A stretch of DNA of 64,000 nucleotides from an uncultured Bacteroidales bacterium. Lineage in GTDB: Bacteria > Bacteroidota > Bacteroidia > Bacteroidales > Bacteroidaceae. How positions within the stretch are numbered: the stretch's first letter is position 1; every line of letters starts with the position of its first letter. The stretch spans positions 186,001 through 250,000 of the forward strand of contig CACYXI010000001.1 of assembly GCA_902778265.1 (NCBI GenBank). The letters are read 5' to 3'. The notes below the pieces were generated by a model. The model was not told the origin of the DNA. It ran no database searches and worked only from the letters and a program-made list of their open reading frames with translations. This document shows, in pieces, positions 35,666 through 41,870 of the stretch. The position numbers and the translations under genes were made by a program.

Positions 35666-38221
35666 ATGGAAGAGAACAAAGTACAACCCAATGTTGGCAT
35701 AAGTGAATTTCTTGAAGGTAGAGACCCACAGGAGAGAATCGTAAATCTCTCATACAAATACAAAGATGACTATATCACGGTAATCTATCGTGACGAGCAA
35801 GACAGAAAATGTCTTTCCCAACAGCCTTTTTATCCATTTCTTTGGGCAACAAGAGATGCATGCCTGAGACTCTGCAATGGCGATAGGACTGAGGTTAAGA
35901 AACTCATGACACAATTCGGCATAAAGTGCCGTGCTTTGGACTATAAGGACACCAAGGGTAATATCTGCGAAAAGATGCTCAATGGATACTTGTTCATCTT
36001 TGAAGCACAGAACCCAATGGCATATAGTGATTTTCTGCGCTTTTTCAAAAAGGCGGGGAATCCTGTTTATGGAGAAAAAGACAAGAACGGCAACGAGAAA
36101 AAGAGAGATGCCGCCCTTGAAAGGCAATACATGGTGGCAACACCACAGGAACAATACCTAATAAGAACAGGAAAACGCTTCTTTAAGGGATACGAAGATT
36201 ATGACGACCTGCTTCGCTGTACATTTGACTTGGAAACAGAAGGTCTTGATGCCAATCGTCATAGAATTATCTCTATTGGTATTCGTTTCAACCGCCCCGT
36301 AACATACAAAAATGTCACCAAAGAGTTTTCCAAGGTCTTGGAATTAGAGGGGAATACCGAGGACGAGAAGAATCGCTCGGAATTGCGCATGATAGATACG
36401 ATGCTTCGTATATTATACACATTCAAACCCGATGTAATTACAGGACACAACTCAGAAAACTTTGACTGGAATTTCATCATAAAAAGATGTACCATACTTG
36501 GATTGCCCTTGGAAGAACTTTCAAAACGTTATTTTGACGGGGAATCCATTAGAAAGGATAGCAGAGAGGCAATACTTAAACTCGGAGGTGAGGTAGAAAA
36601 GTTTCAAAGAACAATTGTTCCAAACATTACCGTAACCGACTCCCTTCATGCGGTACGAAGGGCACAGGCAACAGACAGTAGTTTCAAGAAGGCAGACCTT
36701 AAGTATGCAACCCAATATCTGAAATTGGGTAAGAAAAACCGCGTATATGTACCCGGCAGCGACATCGCCAAGATATCCGATGATTATGAAGAACATTACG
36801 CCTTCAATAATGAAGATGGATATTGGTATGTCTATGACCCCATAAAGGGCTCAGATTCCACAACATACACAAAAGAAAACTCCAAAGCATTCAAGATGAC
36901 AACAAGGAAAAACCTGCTTGAAGGTTTTACCTTAGTCAGTGGTCATTATATTGTGCAGCGCTATCTTGAAGATGATATTTGGGAATGCGACAAGGTTGAA
37001 TATGCATTGAATGGCACTGACTTTATGCTTACCAAGATAATACCCATTCCATATCAGAAAGTGGTAACTATGGGAACCGCAGGCTTATGGAAGGCAATTA
37101 TGTTGGCATGGAGCTACGAACAGAACCTTGCAATCCCCAAGGCGGAAAACACGGGGGCATTTACAGGCGGACTATCTCGCCTTTTAAGGGTTGGGTTCGT
37201 AAAAGATGTTGTAAAACTCGACTATAACTCCCTTTACCCTTCTATTATCCTTACATGGGGAATCAGCGATGAAACCGACCTTAAGGGAAGCATGCTTTCA
37301 ATGTTGGAATATGTCCTTACTACCCGAGAAAAACACAAGAACTTAAAGAAAGCCGCCGGTAAGATTGTTGACGAGTACGAGGCCGAGATGAATAACGGAA
37401 AAATCCTAACCGAAGAGGAGCGAGAGGAATATAGCAAGGCGGGCAGGGACTTCAAGATTGAAGATAATAGGCAAGCTTCGGTAAAGAAACTTGGAAACTC
37501 CTTTTTCGGTTCATATGGCTCTAATAACGGGAGTGTTTTCCCATGGAAATCGCCCACTTGTGCCGAGAGAACGACGTGTACGGGTAGAATGGCCCTTCGC
37601 CTAATGATTAGTCATTTCAAGAATCTTGGATATGAGCCCATCGTTGGCGACTCATTTACCGAAGACACCCCAGTTTTTATTCGTTATACTAAAACTGGCG
37701 AGATTGATATTAAACCGATATCAGAACTTATTAATGAGGATGCAATTGAAATTGACGCTCTCGGTAGGGAATATGATTATAGTCCCAAGAATTACCAAGT
37801 GCTCTGTCGTAGCGGATGGGTAAGCCCCTCTTATATCTATCGTCATAAGACCGACAAAGACATTTATGAAATTGCCGATGGGGATATGAGGATAGAAGTT
37901 ACCGAAGACCACTCCTTATTCGATTCTAAACAGAAGAAAATTAAACCATCTGCAGTGAATGGAGATACAGAGCTTGAATATTTCACTAATAACAAAGTAT
38001 TCAAAGAGAGTAAAATACTAACTTGCGACGCACGGATGGCAGACTATTATGCAAAAGAACTTGCAGATGGCAAAATAGACCGGGTACCGAAATGGTTCCT
38101 TAATCGTGCTGAAGAGGGCAAGAAGTTTTATGCCGCCTTCATTGAAAATCAACGTGATGATGTCGAATATTCCAAGACCTGTCTTGCAGGGTTACAATTT
38201 TTGAAATTTTGCTCTAAATAA
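35666..38221 (+). CDS. DNA polymerase family B, N-terminal part fused to split-intein N half
   Basis: An 851-residue product. Exonuclease motifs: 'FDLETEGLD' (~187) and 'GHNSENFDW' (~258). Polymerase motif A 'DYNSLYPSII' (~520) and motif B 'KKLGNSFFGSYG' (~608). Motif C should be GDTDS/G, but after Gly661-Asp662 the sequence turns into an intein starting at Ser663. So this ORF supplies exonuclease, palm A and B and the first catalytic Asp; the rest of the active site is encoded 1.7 kb downstream. Replicative function depends on trans-splicing with the product starting at 39966. Confidence 0.9.
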   Translation: MEENKVQPNVGISEFLEGRDPQERIVNLSYKYKDDYITVIYRDEQDRKCLSQQPFYPFLWATRDACLRLCNGDRTEVKKLMTQFGIKCRALDYKDTKGNICEKMLNGYLFIFEAQNPMAYSDFLRFFKKAGNPVYGEKDKNGNEKKRDAALERQYMVATPQEQYLIRTGKRFFKGYEDYDDLLRCTFDLETEGLDANRHRIISIGIRFNRPVTYKNVTKEFSKVLELEGNTEDEKNRSELRMIDTMLRILYTFKPDVITGHNSENFDWNFIIKRCTILGLPLEELSKRYFDGESIRKDSREAILKLGGEVEKFQRTIVPNITVTDSLHAVRRAQATDSSFKKADLKYATQYLKLGKKNRVYVPGSDIAKISDDYEEHYAFNNEDGYWYVYDPIKGSDSTTYTKENSKAFKMTTRKNLLEGFTLVSGHYIVQRYLEDDIWECDKVEYALNGTDFMLTKIIPIPYQKVVTMGTAGLWKAIMLAWSYEQNLAIPKAENTGAFTGGLSRLLRVGFVKDVVKLDYNSLYPSIILTWGISDETDLKGSMLSMLEYVLTTREKHKNLKKAAGKIVDEYEAEMNNGKILTEEEREEYSKAGRDFKIEDNRQASVKKLGNSFFGSYGSNNGSVFPWKSPTCAERTTCTGRMALRLMISHFKNLGYEPIVGDSFTEDTPVFIRYTKTGEIDIKPISELINEDAIEIDALGREYDYSPKNYQVLCRSGWVSPSYIYRHKTDKDIYEIADGDMRIEVTEDHSLFDSKQKKIKPSAVNGDTELEYFTNNKVFKESKILTCDARMADYYAKELADGKIDRVPKWFLNRAEEGKKFYAAFIENQRDDVEYSKTCLAGLQFLKFCSK
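37652..38221 (+). other. Split-intein N half (IntN) at the polymerase motif C site
   Basis: Residues 663-851 of the ORF. Block A 'SFTEDTPVFIRY' with Ser1 as nucleophile; block B 'VTEDHSLFD' with the conserved T-x-x-H spacing. The C-terminal ~90 residues ('IDRVPKWFLNRAEEG', then 'CLAGLQFL') look like a remnant of an intein endonuclease region. The insertion site GD/TDG is a known polymerase intein site (the 'pol-c' position). The ORF ends with TAA before any block F/G, so the intein is split. Confidence 0.85.
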
Positions 38222-38271: not shown

Positions 38272-39933
38272 ATGCCGAAAAAACAAACATTAGAGCAACT
38301 GCTAAAAATGGCGAAAGAAATACATGGTGATAAGTATGACTATTCGTTGATTACTGAATACCATGGGGCGGATTACAAATATCCGATTATTTGCCCCGAG
38401 CATGGTGTATTCTATAAATCCCTTTCAAAACATGTCTATTCGAAACAGGGCTGTCCGACATGTGCTAAACGATTCAGGTATAATACAGAAACATTTATTC
38501 GCACAGCACAGAAATTGCCACATTGTAAAAACTATTCTTTTGAAAAAACAGAGTATGTAAATAATAAAACAAAAATCATTGTTACGTGTAAAGAACATGG
38601 CGATTTTCTTATCGCCCCCGGTCACCTATTAAGTGGAGAGGGGTGCCCAACTTGTCGGTATATTAAGTCATCTGCAGGGATACGGCGTTCTATAGACGAA
38701 ATAAAAGAAATAGCCACGAGTGTTCATAAGTCAAAATATGACTACAGCCTAATAACAGACTACAAAAACGATAGAGTTAAATACCCAATAATTTGTCCCG
38801 AGCACGGCGTTTTTTATCAAACCATGAACAACCACATAAAAGGCAGACAGGGCTGCCCAATCTGTGGTCGAGAAAAATGTGGTTTGTCACGACGAATAAC
38901 ATTCGAGGAATGGTCTGAGATGGCAAAGAGCGTTCATAATGATTTTTATACCTATCATAAAGAAGATTATATCGACAATTCATCTAAGACGCGAATTACT
39001 TGCCCCAAACATGGTGATTTTTGGCAATTGGCGAGCAATCACACTTGGTTAAAACAAGGATGTCCCAAATGTGGACACACGATATCATCAGCAGAAGATG
39101 AGATTGCAGCCTATATAAAATCCCTTGGCTTTGAAATTGAAACGAGAAAGAGAATAACAGGAAGGACGGAGGTGGATATTTACGTCCCCTCACAGCATTT
39201 TGCTATTGAATATGATGGGCTGTATTGGCATTCTGAACTAATGAAGACGAGGGGTTTTCATTTAAAAAAGACTAAAACCGTAGAAAGTTTGGGGGTGCGG
39301 CTTTTTCATATATTCGAGGACGAATGGCTTGAAAAGACCGAGATTGTAAAATCAATGATAAAAAACCAATTGGGTATAACAGGCAACAGAATCTTTGCAA
39401 GAAAATGTCAATTGAAGGAAATAGACACTCCAGCAGCAAGAAAGTTTTTAACTGAAAACCATCTTCAGGGATATTGCCCGTCTGGTGTCCGAATTGGTCT
39501 GTTTTATAACGATGAATTAGTCGCCGTTATGACTTTTGGCAAATCAAGGCATTTTATTGGTAGTGGGAAATATCAGATTGAATTGCTACGATACGCGACC
39601 AAAATAAACACCCTTGTGACCGGCGGTGCGAGTAAAATGTTTAAATATTATGTGAGAACCTATAACCCCCAAAGCATTGTCTCTTATGCAGACAGAAGAT
39701 GGTCCGATGGTCACCTATACACGACTTTGGGGTTTGAGAAGTATAATGAGTCGAAGCCAAATTACTATTATATACGGAGGCATAAAAGAATTTATCGCTT
39801 TAATATGCGAAAAAGTATCCTTGTCAAGAAGTTTGGGTGCCCGCCCGATATGACGGAAAGGGAATTCTGTTATAAAAACAAATATTATCGCATATACGAT
39901 TGTGGTTGCTTATGCTATTGTTGGAAACAATAA
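38272..39933 (+). CDS. Free-standing Vsr-like homing endonuclease with zinc-finger repeats
   Basis: A 553-residue protein. Four N-terminal DUF723-type repeats of about 55-65 residues each read 'HGDKYDYS...ICPEHGVF......H....GCPTC', each with Cys/His zinc ligands, probably for DNA binding. From ~270 there is a Vsr-like nuclease domain: 'SSAEDEIAAYIKSLGFEIE', 'EVDIYVPSQHFAIEYDGLYWH' and 'VRLFHIFEDEWL'. A ~170-residue C-terminal domain ends Cys-rich. It sits between the halves of the split polymerase, the arrangement described as 'fractured genes' in phage metagenomes. It probably cleaves the uninterrupted polymerase gene and spreads the whole cassette. Confidence 0.85.
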   Translation: MPKKQTLEQLLKMAKEIHGDKYDYSLITEYHGADYKYPIICPEHGVFYKSLSKHVYSKQGCPTCAKRFRYNTETFIRTAQKLPHCKNYSFEKTEYVNNKTKIIVTCKEHGDFLIAPGHLLSGEGCPTCRYIKSSAGIRRSIDEIKEIATSVHKSKYDYSLITDYKNDRVKYPIICPEHGVFYQTMNNHIKGRQGCPICGREKCGLSRRITFEEWSEMAKSVHNDFYTYHKEDYIDNSSKTRITCPKHGDFWQLASNHTWLKQGCPKCGHTISSAEDEIAAYIKSLGFEIETRKRITGRTEVDIYVPSQHFAIEYDGLYWHSELMKTRGFHLKKTKTVESLGVRLFHIFEDEWLEKTEIVKSMIKNQLGITGNRIFARKCQLKEIDTPAARKFLTENHLQGYCPSGVRIGLFYNDELVAVMTFGKSRHFIGSGKYQIELLRYATKINTLVTGGASKMFKYYVRTYNPQSIVSYADRRWSDGHLYTTLGFEKYNESKPNYYYIRRHKRIYRFNMRKSILVKKFGCPPDMTEREFCYKNKYYRIYDCGCLCYCWKQ

Positions 39934-39942
39934 AATTTTGAT

Positions 39943-39950
39943 TATCTTTG
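39943..39950 (+). promoter_or_regulatory. Host-type -7 element (TATCTTTG) before the polymerase C-terminal part
   Basis: TATCTTTG, 15 bases upstream of ATG 39966; the second polymerase half therefore appears to have its own early promoter, like the first half. Confidence 0.65.
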
Positions 39951-39965
39951 TAAAAATTTTCTTAT

Positions 39966-41870
39966 ATGGTAACTATTAAAAACAAAGGAAGAACGTCCGC
40001 GTATGTTTACGACATTTCCCTCGATGGAACGGTAGTCAATGCCCTTGGCATGAGTGTCGCAAGCAACACGGACGGCTAAATGGTTTCAACTTTAAACTAC
40101 CCAAAGAATCCGAGTATCGTTATACAAAGGAAAAACCTTATATCGGAAAAGGATTAAGTCGGGAGACAAAAGAAGGAAAAGCCTACGTCGGCTTTGAAGC
40201 TGATGTCGCAGAGTTTAATGATACTTTTATGCGCGATTTCAACTATGCCCCAATGGCAGTAAACAAGATGGGGCTTGGCATAAAGAAAATCTGTGCCGCC
40301 TGAGAGTAATTTCAGGGCAATAACCTCTCTAATTGCTGGAAACCCCAAAACGAGCAAGTAGATACGACTTTAACATAGTAATATAGTTAAAGAAGATTGG
40401 GTAACGCCAATTTAAACGTAAAAACTCTATTTGTGGGGCAATCAACTAAAAGCAGCCAAGTGTCCTAAAGGACAAAGGTTCAACGACTATTCCGAAAGGA
40501 AGTACACTGAAAAGTGGAAATGGGAGGCTCCCGAAAGGGATGATGATATAGTCTTAAAGACGCGAATAGACAAAGGCGTTATATTTTGAGATGAAATCGT
40601 AGATGCAACTATTAACGTATCAAGGAAGAACTACTGTGATTTTTTCCCCGAGAAACCATACCCCGAGGATGTGAAACTTGTGGGCAATACCATCAAGTCA
40701 AAAAGGATATCTGCATACGTAGAGGCCTTTATTGACAGGGGCGTCCGTCTTCTTCTCCGAGGAAAGGGACAGGACTTCATTGAGGAGTATTATGACACCA
40801 TATCCAAGATATACAACTATCAGATTCCGCTTAAGGACATTGCGTCCAAGGCAAAGGTGAAGAAGACCGTTGATGATTATATCGCCGATTGTCAGACGCT
40901 TACCAAAGCAGGTAGGCCCAAGTCAAGACAGGCGTGGATGGAACTCGCAATCAATGCGGGTATCAACCCCGACCTTGGAGATACCTTATATTATATTAAT
41001 ACGGGAAAGGCCAAGTCTCAGTCCGACGTTAAGAAAGTAACGCACTACTATCAGATAAACGAAGATGGCACCAAACAAGATGTCATCACCAAGATAGAAA
41101 AGGCATATAAAGAATACAAGAAGGAACGCAAGGACAAAGGCAAAGAGCCCCTGCCTAAAGATGAGTTTATAGTAAGGAAATTCCCCACAGTGGTAAAGGA
41201 TGATGAGATTATCCTCAACGCACAGCTCCTTCCGAGGGAGATTGTGGAAGCAGAAGAAGATACGCCCTGTAACCTCACGATTGAATATAATGTTCCAAAG
41301 TACATAGAACAGTTCAATAAAAGGATTACGCCACTTCTTGTTTGTTTCAAAAAGGACATCCGAAATAAGATTCTCGTTACAAAACCTTCAGACCGACAGT
41401 ATTTCACTCAGGAAGAATGTGAACTTTCAAGCGGAGAACCCAACAGGAAAGGTGACCAAGATACCTACGAGCAGTTGATGACGATGGAAGACAAGGAAAT
41501 CGCCTTTTGGAAGGCCCACCCCGAATTTAAAATTCCCTACTTGAAAGAGTGTGGTATGGATTGGAATCAAATCCTTGATGATTACAACAAACGCAAGGAA
41601 GAAGAAATTCTCTACGGCGTTGATAAAGAACGCGAAAAGTTCAATAAGCTTGTTGAGGGCTTGTCCAAACAAGAGATTGAAGATATGCTTGACGGTGTTA
41701 TTCCTGACAGGATTTCCGCTGCAGCCGACCTTGATAACGAAACATTAAATTTTGTTTCCAAGACACACCCCGAGTTCGTATTTAGCTCAATCTACGACAT
41801 CCTTGAACAGGGGGATAAAACAAGTGACTACGACGAAGCTTCCTATGACATTGAAGAAGAGGAATATTAG
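39966..41870 (+). CDS. Split-intein C half plus DNA polymerase C-terminal part (interrupted)
   Basis: Codons 1-34 (39966-40067) encode IntC: block F 'VYDISLDGTVV' and block G '..SVASN', ending Asn, followed by extein Thr-Asp-Gly, which completes motif C as G-D/T-D-G. A TAA then follows at 40077. Eight bases after the start of the last Gly codon the polymerase frame resumes at GGT-TTC (GFNFKLPKES...). It runs to base 40281, where a group I intron interrupts, and continues from 40589 (..GI-DEIVDATINVSRKNY) to TAG 41870. Joining all parts gives a continuous polymerase C-terminus of ~495 residues. The total mature enzyme would be ~1,157 aa, longer than T4 gp43. Confidence 0.8.
40077..40081 (+). 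other. Five-base out-of-frame interruption TAAAT (candidate translational bypass site)
   Basis: GAC-GGC is followed by TAA-AT and then GGT-TTC. If a Gly-tRNA took off from GGC and landed on GGT, five bases would be skipped and the conserved T-D-G-F frame restored. The take-off codon is followed directly by a stop, as in the phage T4 gene 60 bypass. A -1 shift would also restore the frame but adds two residues. Confidence 0.5.
40282..40588 (+). ncRNA. Group I self-splicing intron in the polymerase gene (no ORF)
   Basis: The 5' exon ends GGCAT/ and pairs with intron GTGCC (P1, with the required U-G at the splice site). Adjacent intron ATCT pairs with 3' exon AGAT (P10). The intron ends in G at 40588. 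The core contains a GTTCAACGACTA block (P7 side) and 'GATATAGTCT' (partner), plus 'AATTGCTGGAAACC'. Removal joins ..GGC-ATA-GAT-GAA.. in frame (Gly-Ile-Asp-Glu). 307 bases, with no endonuclease gene inside. Splicing is inferred from structure. Confidence 0.9.

What the first reader, a model, noticed from the sequence alone, without database searches (positions are those of the whole stretch)
40068..40090. Possible miniature ribosomal bypass: GGC-[TAAAT]-GGT directly after the polymerase T-D-G
The frame stops at TAA right after ACG-GAC-GGC. Skipping five bases from Gly codon GGC to Gly codon GGT restores T-D-G-F-N-F and ~490 further polymerase residues. Take-off and landing codons are both readable by one tRNA-Gly, and a stop follows take-off, as in T4 gene 60. 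In T4 the bypass also neighbours a homing endonuclease and is thought to alter its target; here the interruption lies 9 bases from the intein insertion point. If real, it is far shorter than the 50-nt T4 gap.
Basis: partly seen in the sequence, partly recalled or inferred. Interest (0 to 1): 0.9.

Follow-up and report, generated by a model that had tools for sequence, protein, structure and literature searches.

The report
Ribosome stop-hops in phage polymerase genes
Twelve phage sequences, this one among them, carry a stop codon between two glycine codons in the active-site stretch of a DNA polymerase gene, and the ribosome likely hops from the first glycine codon to the second so that the normal enzyme would still be made.

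Summary
Window 40068-40084 reads ACG GAC GGC | TAAAT | GGT; the stop lies 9 nt after the junction of a split intein at the polymerase motif VGD|TDG. Eleven further viral contigs carry Gly codon, stop codon, 0-3 nt, Gly codon at exactly this place, with gaps of 3, 4, 5 or 6 nt and all three stop codons, so the downstream frame varies while the protein implied by a hop (TDG-F) does not. All 24 flanking glycine codons are GGC or GGT. Downstream codons are under purifying selection (dN/dS 0.046 and 0.069 in the two gap-gap pairs where it could be computed). No start codon is shared that could begin the second part alone, and each of 10 records searched holds one copy. A short ribosomal hop explains every case; frameshifting, readthrough, reinitiation or decay each fail for some. 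The gap occurs in 12 of 40 split-intein, 0 of 12 contiguous-intein and 0 of 46 intein-less alleles. One relative (GGT-TAA-GGT) has the form of the synthetic 'stop-hop', of which a 2016 review knew no natural in-frame case. Hopping itself, its efficiency and its purpose are untested.

The parts
35666..37651 (+). N-terminal part of a family B DNA polymerase, ending in PIVGD
   Evidence: Pfam DNA_pol_B_exo1 E 3.7e-11, DNA_pol_B E 1.5e-8; PHROG 262 DNA polymerase E 3.5e-55
37652..38221 (+). N-half of the split intein (SFTEDTP...EVTEDHSLF...), in one ORF with the N-terminal polymerase part
   Evidence: 34% identity over 157 aa to the contiguous intein of relative L179, which matches Pfam Intein_splicing E 1.1e-6, below the curated cut-off; the window's own N-half matches that model only at E 0.15
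38272..39933 (+). free-standing homing endonuclease ORF (553 aa; DUF723 stretches, EYDGLYWHSE)
   Evidence: PHROG 559 HNH endonuclease E 1.7e-131, PHROG 3339 homing endonuclease E 8.2e-110; Pfam DUF723 E 6e-17, MTES_1575 E 1.9e-6 (below cut-off)
39918..39950 (+). promoter-like TTG-N-TAnnTTTG element upstream of the C-intein ORF
   Evidence: pattern match in 14 of 34 distinct split loci against 2.5% of 5000 random 131-nt stretches of the window; that the pattern is a Bacteroidota-type promoter is recalled
39966..40067 (+). C-half of the split intein (MVTIKNKGRTSAYVYDISLDGTVVNALGMSVASN)
   Evidence: alignment A1 of 10 C-inteins
40068..40076 (+). first C-extein codons T-D-G; GGC at 40074-40076 is the predicted take-off codon
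40077..40081 (+). predicted untranslated gap TAAAT, stop TAA at 40077-40079
   Evidence: gaps at the same codon in 11 other contigs
40082..40084 (+). predicted landing codon GGT
40085..40281 (+). C-extein, first exon (FNFKLPKESEYRYT...NKMGLGI)
   Evidence: alignable with relatives from the landing codon on
40282..40588 (+). ORF-less group I intron; boundaries inferred from the protein sequence
   Evidence: Rfam RF00028 at 40251-40559, E 8.7e-8, below the gathering score; boundaries
40589..41870 (+). C-extein, second exon of the polymerase, ending in TAG
   Evidence: profile built on this piece and relatives: 458 relatives in viral contigs, best 80 kept

Best explanation
In this phage polymerase gene the ribosome is predicted to hop from glycine codon GGC over the stop-containing gap TAAAT to glycine codon GGT, keeping the same peptidyl-tRNA-Gly, so that one glycine would be made where the DNA holds Gly-stop-gap-Gly. 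Inferred steps: (1) the C-half of the split intein is translated from its own ATG, and the stop meets the ribosome 37-41 codons later (counted from the first in-frame ATG in each of the 12); (2) the slow stop codon in the A site lets tRNA-Gly leave the first codon and re-pair at the GGY codon 3-6 nt further on; (3) decoding resumes at Phe, giving TDG-F-(N/D)-F as in uninterrupted alleles; (4) the C-intein trans-splices with the N-half, leaving an ordinary polymerase. Ribosomes that fail to hop would release a short C-intein-TDG peptide. Shown directly: the sequence, its recurrence with different gap lengths and stops, the codon bias of the flanking glycines, purifying selection downstream, and restriction to split-intein alleles in the set examined. 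Most likely role (inferred, weaker): the gap changes the DNA at an invariant catalytic codon without changing the protein, perhaps making the allele resistant to a homing endonuclease that cuts near this point, as proposed for T4 gene 60. It may be tolerated in split alleles because the C-part is a separate translation unit that could be over-produced to offset lost ribosomes.
For: Twelve contigs with Gly-stop-gap-Gly at the same codon: gaps TAA; TGAA; TAAAT, TGAAA, TGAAT x3; TAGCTA x3, TGAATA x2. Gap length modulo 3 takes all three values. dN/dS downstream of the gap between gap alleles is 0.046 (L125/L126, 477 codons, dS 3.2) and 0.069 (L125/L135, dS 2.2); in the other gap-gap pairs printed dS was saturated and no ratio could be given (25 closest pairs printed). 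The 47 codons from landing on are alignable across the 12 (mean pN 0.236, pS 0.818, 66 pairs); the other two frames hold 0-2 and 4-10 stops. No start codon in the landing frame upstream in 11 of 12 (L143 has some), and the first one downstream lies anywhere from codon 5 to codon 82. One polymerase match in each of 10 records searched, some of them fragments. None of the 86 gap-less contigs has extra sense codons here. Stop-hops between matched codons are known from synthetic constructs (PMC5009743, passages read).
Against: No translation data of any kind. No unusual RNA structure: z from -1.37 to +1.05 in 11 of the 12 gap alleles folded, and no T4-like KKYK in the C-inteins seen, so the efficiency could be low. 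Six of 12 gaps are in frame, where readthrough alone is possible. Three contigs share TAGCTA, three TGAAT and two TGAATA, so the cases are not independent. The gap label is scattered on the polymerase tree (11 changes for 12 rows, shuffled mean 11.5) and on the N-intein tree (8 changes for 9 rows, shuffled mean 8.1), so joint transmission with the whole intein cassette is not shown. A shared choice of codons upstream (AGC AAC ACC/G GAY GGC) is unexplained.
Confidence: 0.85

Rival explanations
1. Two-piece polymerase: translation ends at the stop, the intein would add only TDG to the N-part, and the C-part would be made separately and associate without a peptide bond, as in split gene 43 of Aeromonas phage 25.
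For: Split gene 43 products of phage 25 co-purify and have polymerase activity (PMC2988022, passages read). TDG would complete the catalytic motif.
Against: No start codon in the landing frame upstream in 11 of 12; in five of these an in-frame stop stands one codon before the landing codon and in L113 directly before it; first downstream starts lie at codons 5 to 82. Codons are conserved from the landing Gly itself. It does not explain why both flanking codons are GGY.
Confidence: 0.06
2. Different known recoding events in different phages: stop readthrough for the 3- and 6-nt gaps and -1 or +1 frameshifting for the 5- and 4-nt gaps.
For: Each gap can be reached by some such event. The contig of L133 (G305) has a predicted tRNA with anticodon TTA.
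Against: Needs three mechanisms at one codon. No slippery run is present: tRNA-Gly on GGC would have to re-pair at CGG or TGG (-1) or GCT (+1), poor matches (judged by eye). Products would carry 2-3 extra residues in motif C, seen in none of 86 gap-less contigs. All three stops occur, so no single suppressor fits; L133's own gap stop is TGA. On the window's contig 11 tRNA candidates were found; in the stretches then scanned 9 tRNAs had a sense anticodon, one was unassigned, and two of the candidates were not called by the second program.
Confidence: 0.04
3. The gap is removed before translation, by RNA excision or template slippage, so the ribosome never meets it.
For: Would explain gap-length variation with an unchanged protein. 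The gene already has a group I intron nearby.
Against: Would not require the wobble base of the flanking glycine codons to suit one tRNA, nor a stop codon flush after the first Gly. No unusual structure.
Confidence: 0.03
4. Inactivated genes or assembly errors.
For: All sequences are metagenome assemblies; reads could not be examined.
Against: Twelve contigs from eight IMG data sets plus the window's assembly, with seven different gap sequences at one codon; dN/dS 0.046 and 0.069 downstream at dS of 2-3; no second copy in the 10 records searched.
Confidence: 0.02

Closest known systems
Programmed bypass of T4 gene 60
   Same: Glycine take-off and landing codons, stop codon directly after take-off, short distance from the start (46 codons there, 37-41 here), a homing endonuclease nearby (PMC5009743 and PMC11194080, passages read)
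   Different: Gap 3-6 nt instead of 50; flanking codons identical in only 4 of 12 (GGA/GGA in T4); no unusual folds and no KKYK signal; twelve contigs instead of one gene
Synthetic stop-hops (Weiss et al. 1987, as described in PMC5009743; original not seen)
   Same: Matched codons flanking a stop, 9 nt giving one amino acid: L113 GGT-TAA-GGT has exactly this form
   Different: Natural and recurrent; the review says of natural in-frame stop hopping that no occurrences were known
Mitochondrial bypassing elements of the yeast Magnusiomyces
   Same: Short inserts skipped in translation (PMC5009743, passages; the title of a work it cites speaks of their mobility)
   Different: Bacteriophage gene, one fixed site, GGY on both sides, stop codon always first in the gap
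Fractured genes with split inteins and a free-standing homing endonuclease (Dassa et al. 2009; not held; recalled)
   Same: N-part with intein N-half, endonuclease ORF, intein C-half with C-part
   Different: Adds a hop site 9 nt into the C-extein; two gap alleles lack an endonuclease ORF between the halves
Split gene 43 of Aeromonas phage 25
   Same: Interrupted family B polymerase near a homing endonuclease (PMC2988022, passages)
   Different: There two separate polypeptides; here no usable second start
Candidate bypasses: terminase of Streptomyces phage Hau3; 29-nt hop in a Prevotella loescheii adhesin gene
   Same: Reported or suspected bypassing in a phage or in a Bacteroidota gene (PMC5009743, passages)
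   Different: Both described there as likely or not followed up; other genes and gap types

Membership tests
T4 gene 60-type programmed bypass | take-off and landing codons readable by the same tRNA | tested here: met
   12 of 12 GGY/GGY; identical codons in 4 of 12 (L113, L131, L136, L143). That one tRNA-Gly reads GGC and GGT is established knowledge, not tested
T4 gene 60-type programmed bypass | stop codon 3'-adjacent to take-off | tested here: met
   12 of 12
T4 gene 60-type programmed bypass | 50-nt gap with 5' and take-off stem-loops | tested here: not met
   gaps 3-6 nt; fold z-scores -1.37 to +1.05 in 11 of 12 alleles
T4 gene 60-type programmed bypass | KKYK nascent-peptide signal | tested here: not met
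   no KKYK in the C-inteins of the 12 (read by eye)
T4 gene 60-type programmed bypass | fused product made | not testable with these tools
   no expression data
Stop-hop (short forward hop over a stop) | matched codons flank a stop within a few nt | tested here: met
   gaps 3-6 nt; GGT-TAA-GGT in L113
Stop-hop (short forward hop over a stop) | hopping demonstrated | not testable with these tools
   needs reporter or peptide
Split intein | intein motifs with splicing residues at both junctions | tested here: met
   Ser1 and TEDH in the N-half, shared with the contiguous intein of L179; SN|T at the C-junction. Pfam Intein_splicing alone is weak for the window's N-half (E 0.15)
Split intein | two halves in separate ORFs | tested here: met
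   ORF 35666-38221 and the ORF from 39966
Split intein | trans-splicing activity | not testable with these tools
   bench test needed

The most novel reading that the evidence does not exclude
A family of naturally selected minimal stop-hops in phages: ordinary host ribosomes cross 3-6 nt with little more than GGY-stop-GGY, and the hop site behaves as a tiny translational intron beside a split intein, letting DNA at an invariant catalytic codon change (to escape a homing endonuclease) while the protein stays identical.
Probability: 0.5. Interest if true: 0.95.

Novelty: new variant of a known kind. Interest (0 to 1): 0.9.

Why it matters
Proven ribosomal bypassing in a phage has rested essentially on T4 gene 60, whose long gap and elaborate signals hide the minimum needed; the other phage and bacterial cases in the review read here (Streptomyces phage Hau3, a Prevotella loescheii adhesin) are candidates. 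Here is a set of natural variants with gaps of 3, 4, 5 and 6 nt, all three stop codons and closely related gap-less alleles: a ready-made experiment on what a ribosome needs to hop. In-frame stop-hopping had been shown in synthetic constructs but, per that 2016 review, was not known in nature. Gene finders would break such genes in two, so more may be hidden. If the homing link holds, it shows a way to alter an essential target's DNA without touching the protein.

Tried and rejected
Assembly error, pseudogene, a single frameshift, suppressor tRNA, reinitiation and a two-piece polymerase were considered and rejected as described. Phage-encoded release factors: none in 4 viral records; the window's assembly has 2 matches, on contigs other than C1. 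RNA structure around the site: nothing unusual. Rfam at gathering threshold found nothing in the window; the group I intron appears only below that threshold. Genome contigs gave no relative with the single protein and 7 with the profile, none with a gap (L227 has a contiguous intein, the other six none). A search of 301 genomes of the host family matched only the window's own copy. An intein-less version of the hop pattern, with GGT alone for the Gly before D, had no match. The named-phage collection had no protein match. Limits: the best 80 of 458 polymerase relatives were kept; denominators rest on 98 distinct contigs with near-copies among them; the first pattern scan allowed only GGC and TAA/TGA and missed true cases that later scans found.

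Full report
What is there. The window is part of a 286,648-base contig with a terminase large subunit, i.e. most likely a large phage binned with an assembly of 4.96 Mb. Its family B DNA polymerase gene is in pieces: an N-part ending in PIVGD fused to an intein N-half (35666-38221), a free-standing homing endonuclease ORF (38272-39933), and a C-part that starts with an intein C-half (ATG 39966) and continues with TDG at 40068. A group I intron without an ORF follows at about 40282-40588. Nine bases after the intein junction the frame ends in TAA; polymerase sequence resumes in another frame at GGT 40082.

Relatives. Profile searches with the C-intein (35 loci) and with the second polymerase exon give, with the window, 98 distinct contigs: 46 without intein, 12 with a contiguous intein, 28 with a split intein and no gap, and 12 with a split intein and a gap. 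The gap-less ones read TDG followed directly by F, V, I or M. The 12 gap alleles read GGY, a stop codon, 0-3 further bases, GGY, then F-(N/D)-F: window GGC-TAAAT-GGT; L113 GGT-TAA-GGT; L143 GGC-TGAA-GGC; L133 GGC-TGAAA-GGT; L136 GGC-TGAAT-GGC; L137 and L142 GGC-TGAAT-GGT; L125, L126 and L135 GGC-TAGCTA-GGT; L131 GGC-TGAATA-GGC; L140 GGC-TGAATA-GGT. Window, L137 (as L009), L131 (as L010) and L143 (as L016) were first met through the polymerase or endonuclease protein without any search for a gap. L136 (as L100) and L142 (as L095) first came from a gap pattern. All 11 non-window cases also came up in the C-intein profile search, which does not look at the gap, though five of them were rows of its alignment. 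Two broader pattern scans returned the same 11 contigs and no further true case; the four chance matches have GGG, GGG, GGT and GGA as first Gly codon.

Why a hop. The gap length is 0, 1 or 2 modulo 3, so no fixed frameshift and no readthrough can serve all. A hop from the first glycine codon to the second gives TDG-F in each, as in gap-less alleles. All flanking glycine codons are GGY; distinct gap-less split alleles have GGY in 13 of 22 (Fisher p 0.013 for take-off, and the same for landing) and GGC in 4 of 22 against 11 of 12 (p 4.8e-5). These p-values treat sequences as independent, which they are only in part: there are seven distinct gap sequences. Selection at the wobble base points to tRNA pairing, hence to translation rather than RNA processing.

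The gene is alive. Between gap alleles dN/dS downstream is 0.046 (L125/L126) and 0.069 (L125/L135) at dS of 2-3; other gap-gap pairs were saturated. Conservation starts at the landing codon. No usable start is shared. Each of 10 records holds one polymerase match; the records of L125 and L136 were not in that search. The standard code fits the window: mechanical ORFs of 150 aa or more end in TAA 30, TAG 14, TGA 5 times.

Where it occurs. The gap is confined to split-intein alleles in this set: 12 of 40 against 0 of 12 contiguous (Fisher p 0.047) and 0 of 46 intein-less (p 3.7e-5). In all 12 the take-off lies 37-41 codons from the first in-frame C-intein ATG. On the polymerase tree (96 rows) the gap label needs 11 changes for 12 rows, no better than shuffled, and on the N-intein tree (37 rows) 8 changes for 9 rows: it comes and goes, or moves in short tracts. 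The last 54 nt before the gap are more alike among gap alleles (0.770) than among distinct gap-less split alleles (0.710; 86 of 20,000 label draws as high), while the 12 nt after the landing codon are not (0.746 against 0.784). The codons before the gap share AGC AAC ACC/ACG GAY GGC, with third-position GC 0.64 against 0.36. This may be a short shared tract or a requirement of the hop; it is unexplained.

Purpose (inferred). The site is a catalytic motif; no gap-less contig has extra residues there. A hop is a way to insert DNA at this codon without altering the protein. [quoted passage not shown] The same could hold here, but two gap alleles have no endonuclease-sized ORF between the intein halves (L137, L140), and no cleavage data exist. 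A dosage role is the alternative.

Literature. Passages of PMC5009743, PMC2988022, PMC11194080 and PMC3653736 were read. The listings of searches of the held library showed no title or abstract start reporting such sites in phage polymerases; most subscription papers are not held, so this is not proof of absence in print.

Noticed in passing
window 40282-40588: ORF-less group I intron in the same polymerase gene, about 200 nt after the hop site; part of its core is near-identical to stretches of Lak, Enterococcus and Staphylococcus phages. L004 appears to carry a similar intron but no gap.
   Followed up: partly
L261 2009-2080 (contig of L133, G305): Predicted tRNA with anticodon TTA (would read UAA), on the same stretch as a tmRNA gene; the contig's own gap stop is UGA.
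   Followed up: partly
G303 (contig of L126): 44 tRNA matches on one 409,537-base phage contig, two without a readable anticodon in stretch L255.
   Followed up: no
window 39918-39950: Promoter-like TTG-N-TAnnTTTG directly upstream of the C-intein ORF; similar matches in 14 of 34 distinct split loci.
   Followed up: partly
the 12 gap alleles, last 5 codons before the stop: Preferred synonymous choice AGC AAC ACC/G GAY GGC that most gap-less split alleles lack.
   Followed up: partly
L112, L114, L123: Two endonuclease-sized ORFs one after the other between the intein halves.
   Followed up: no
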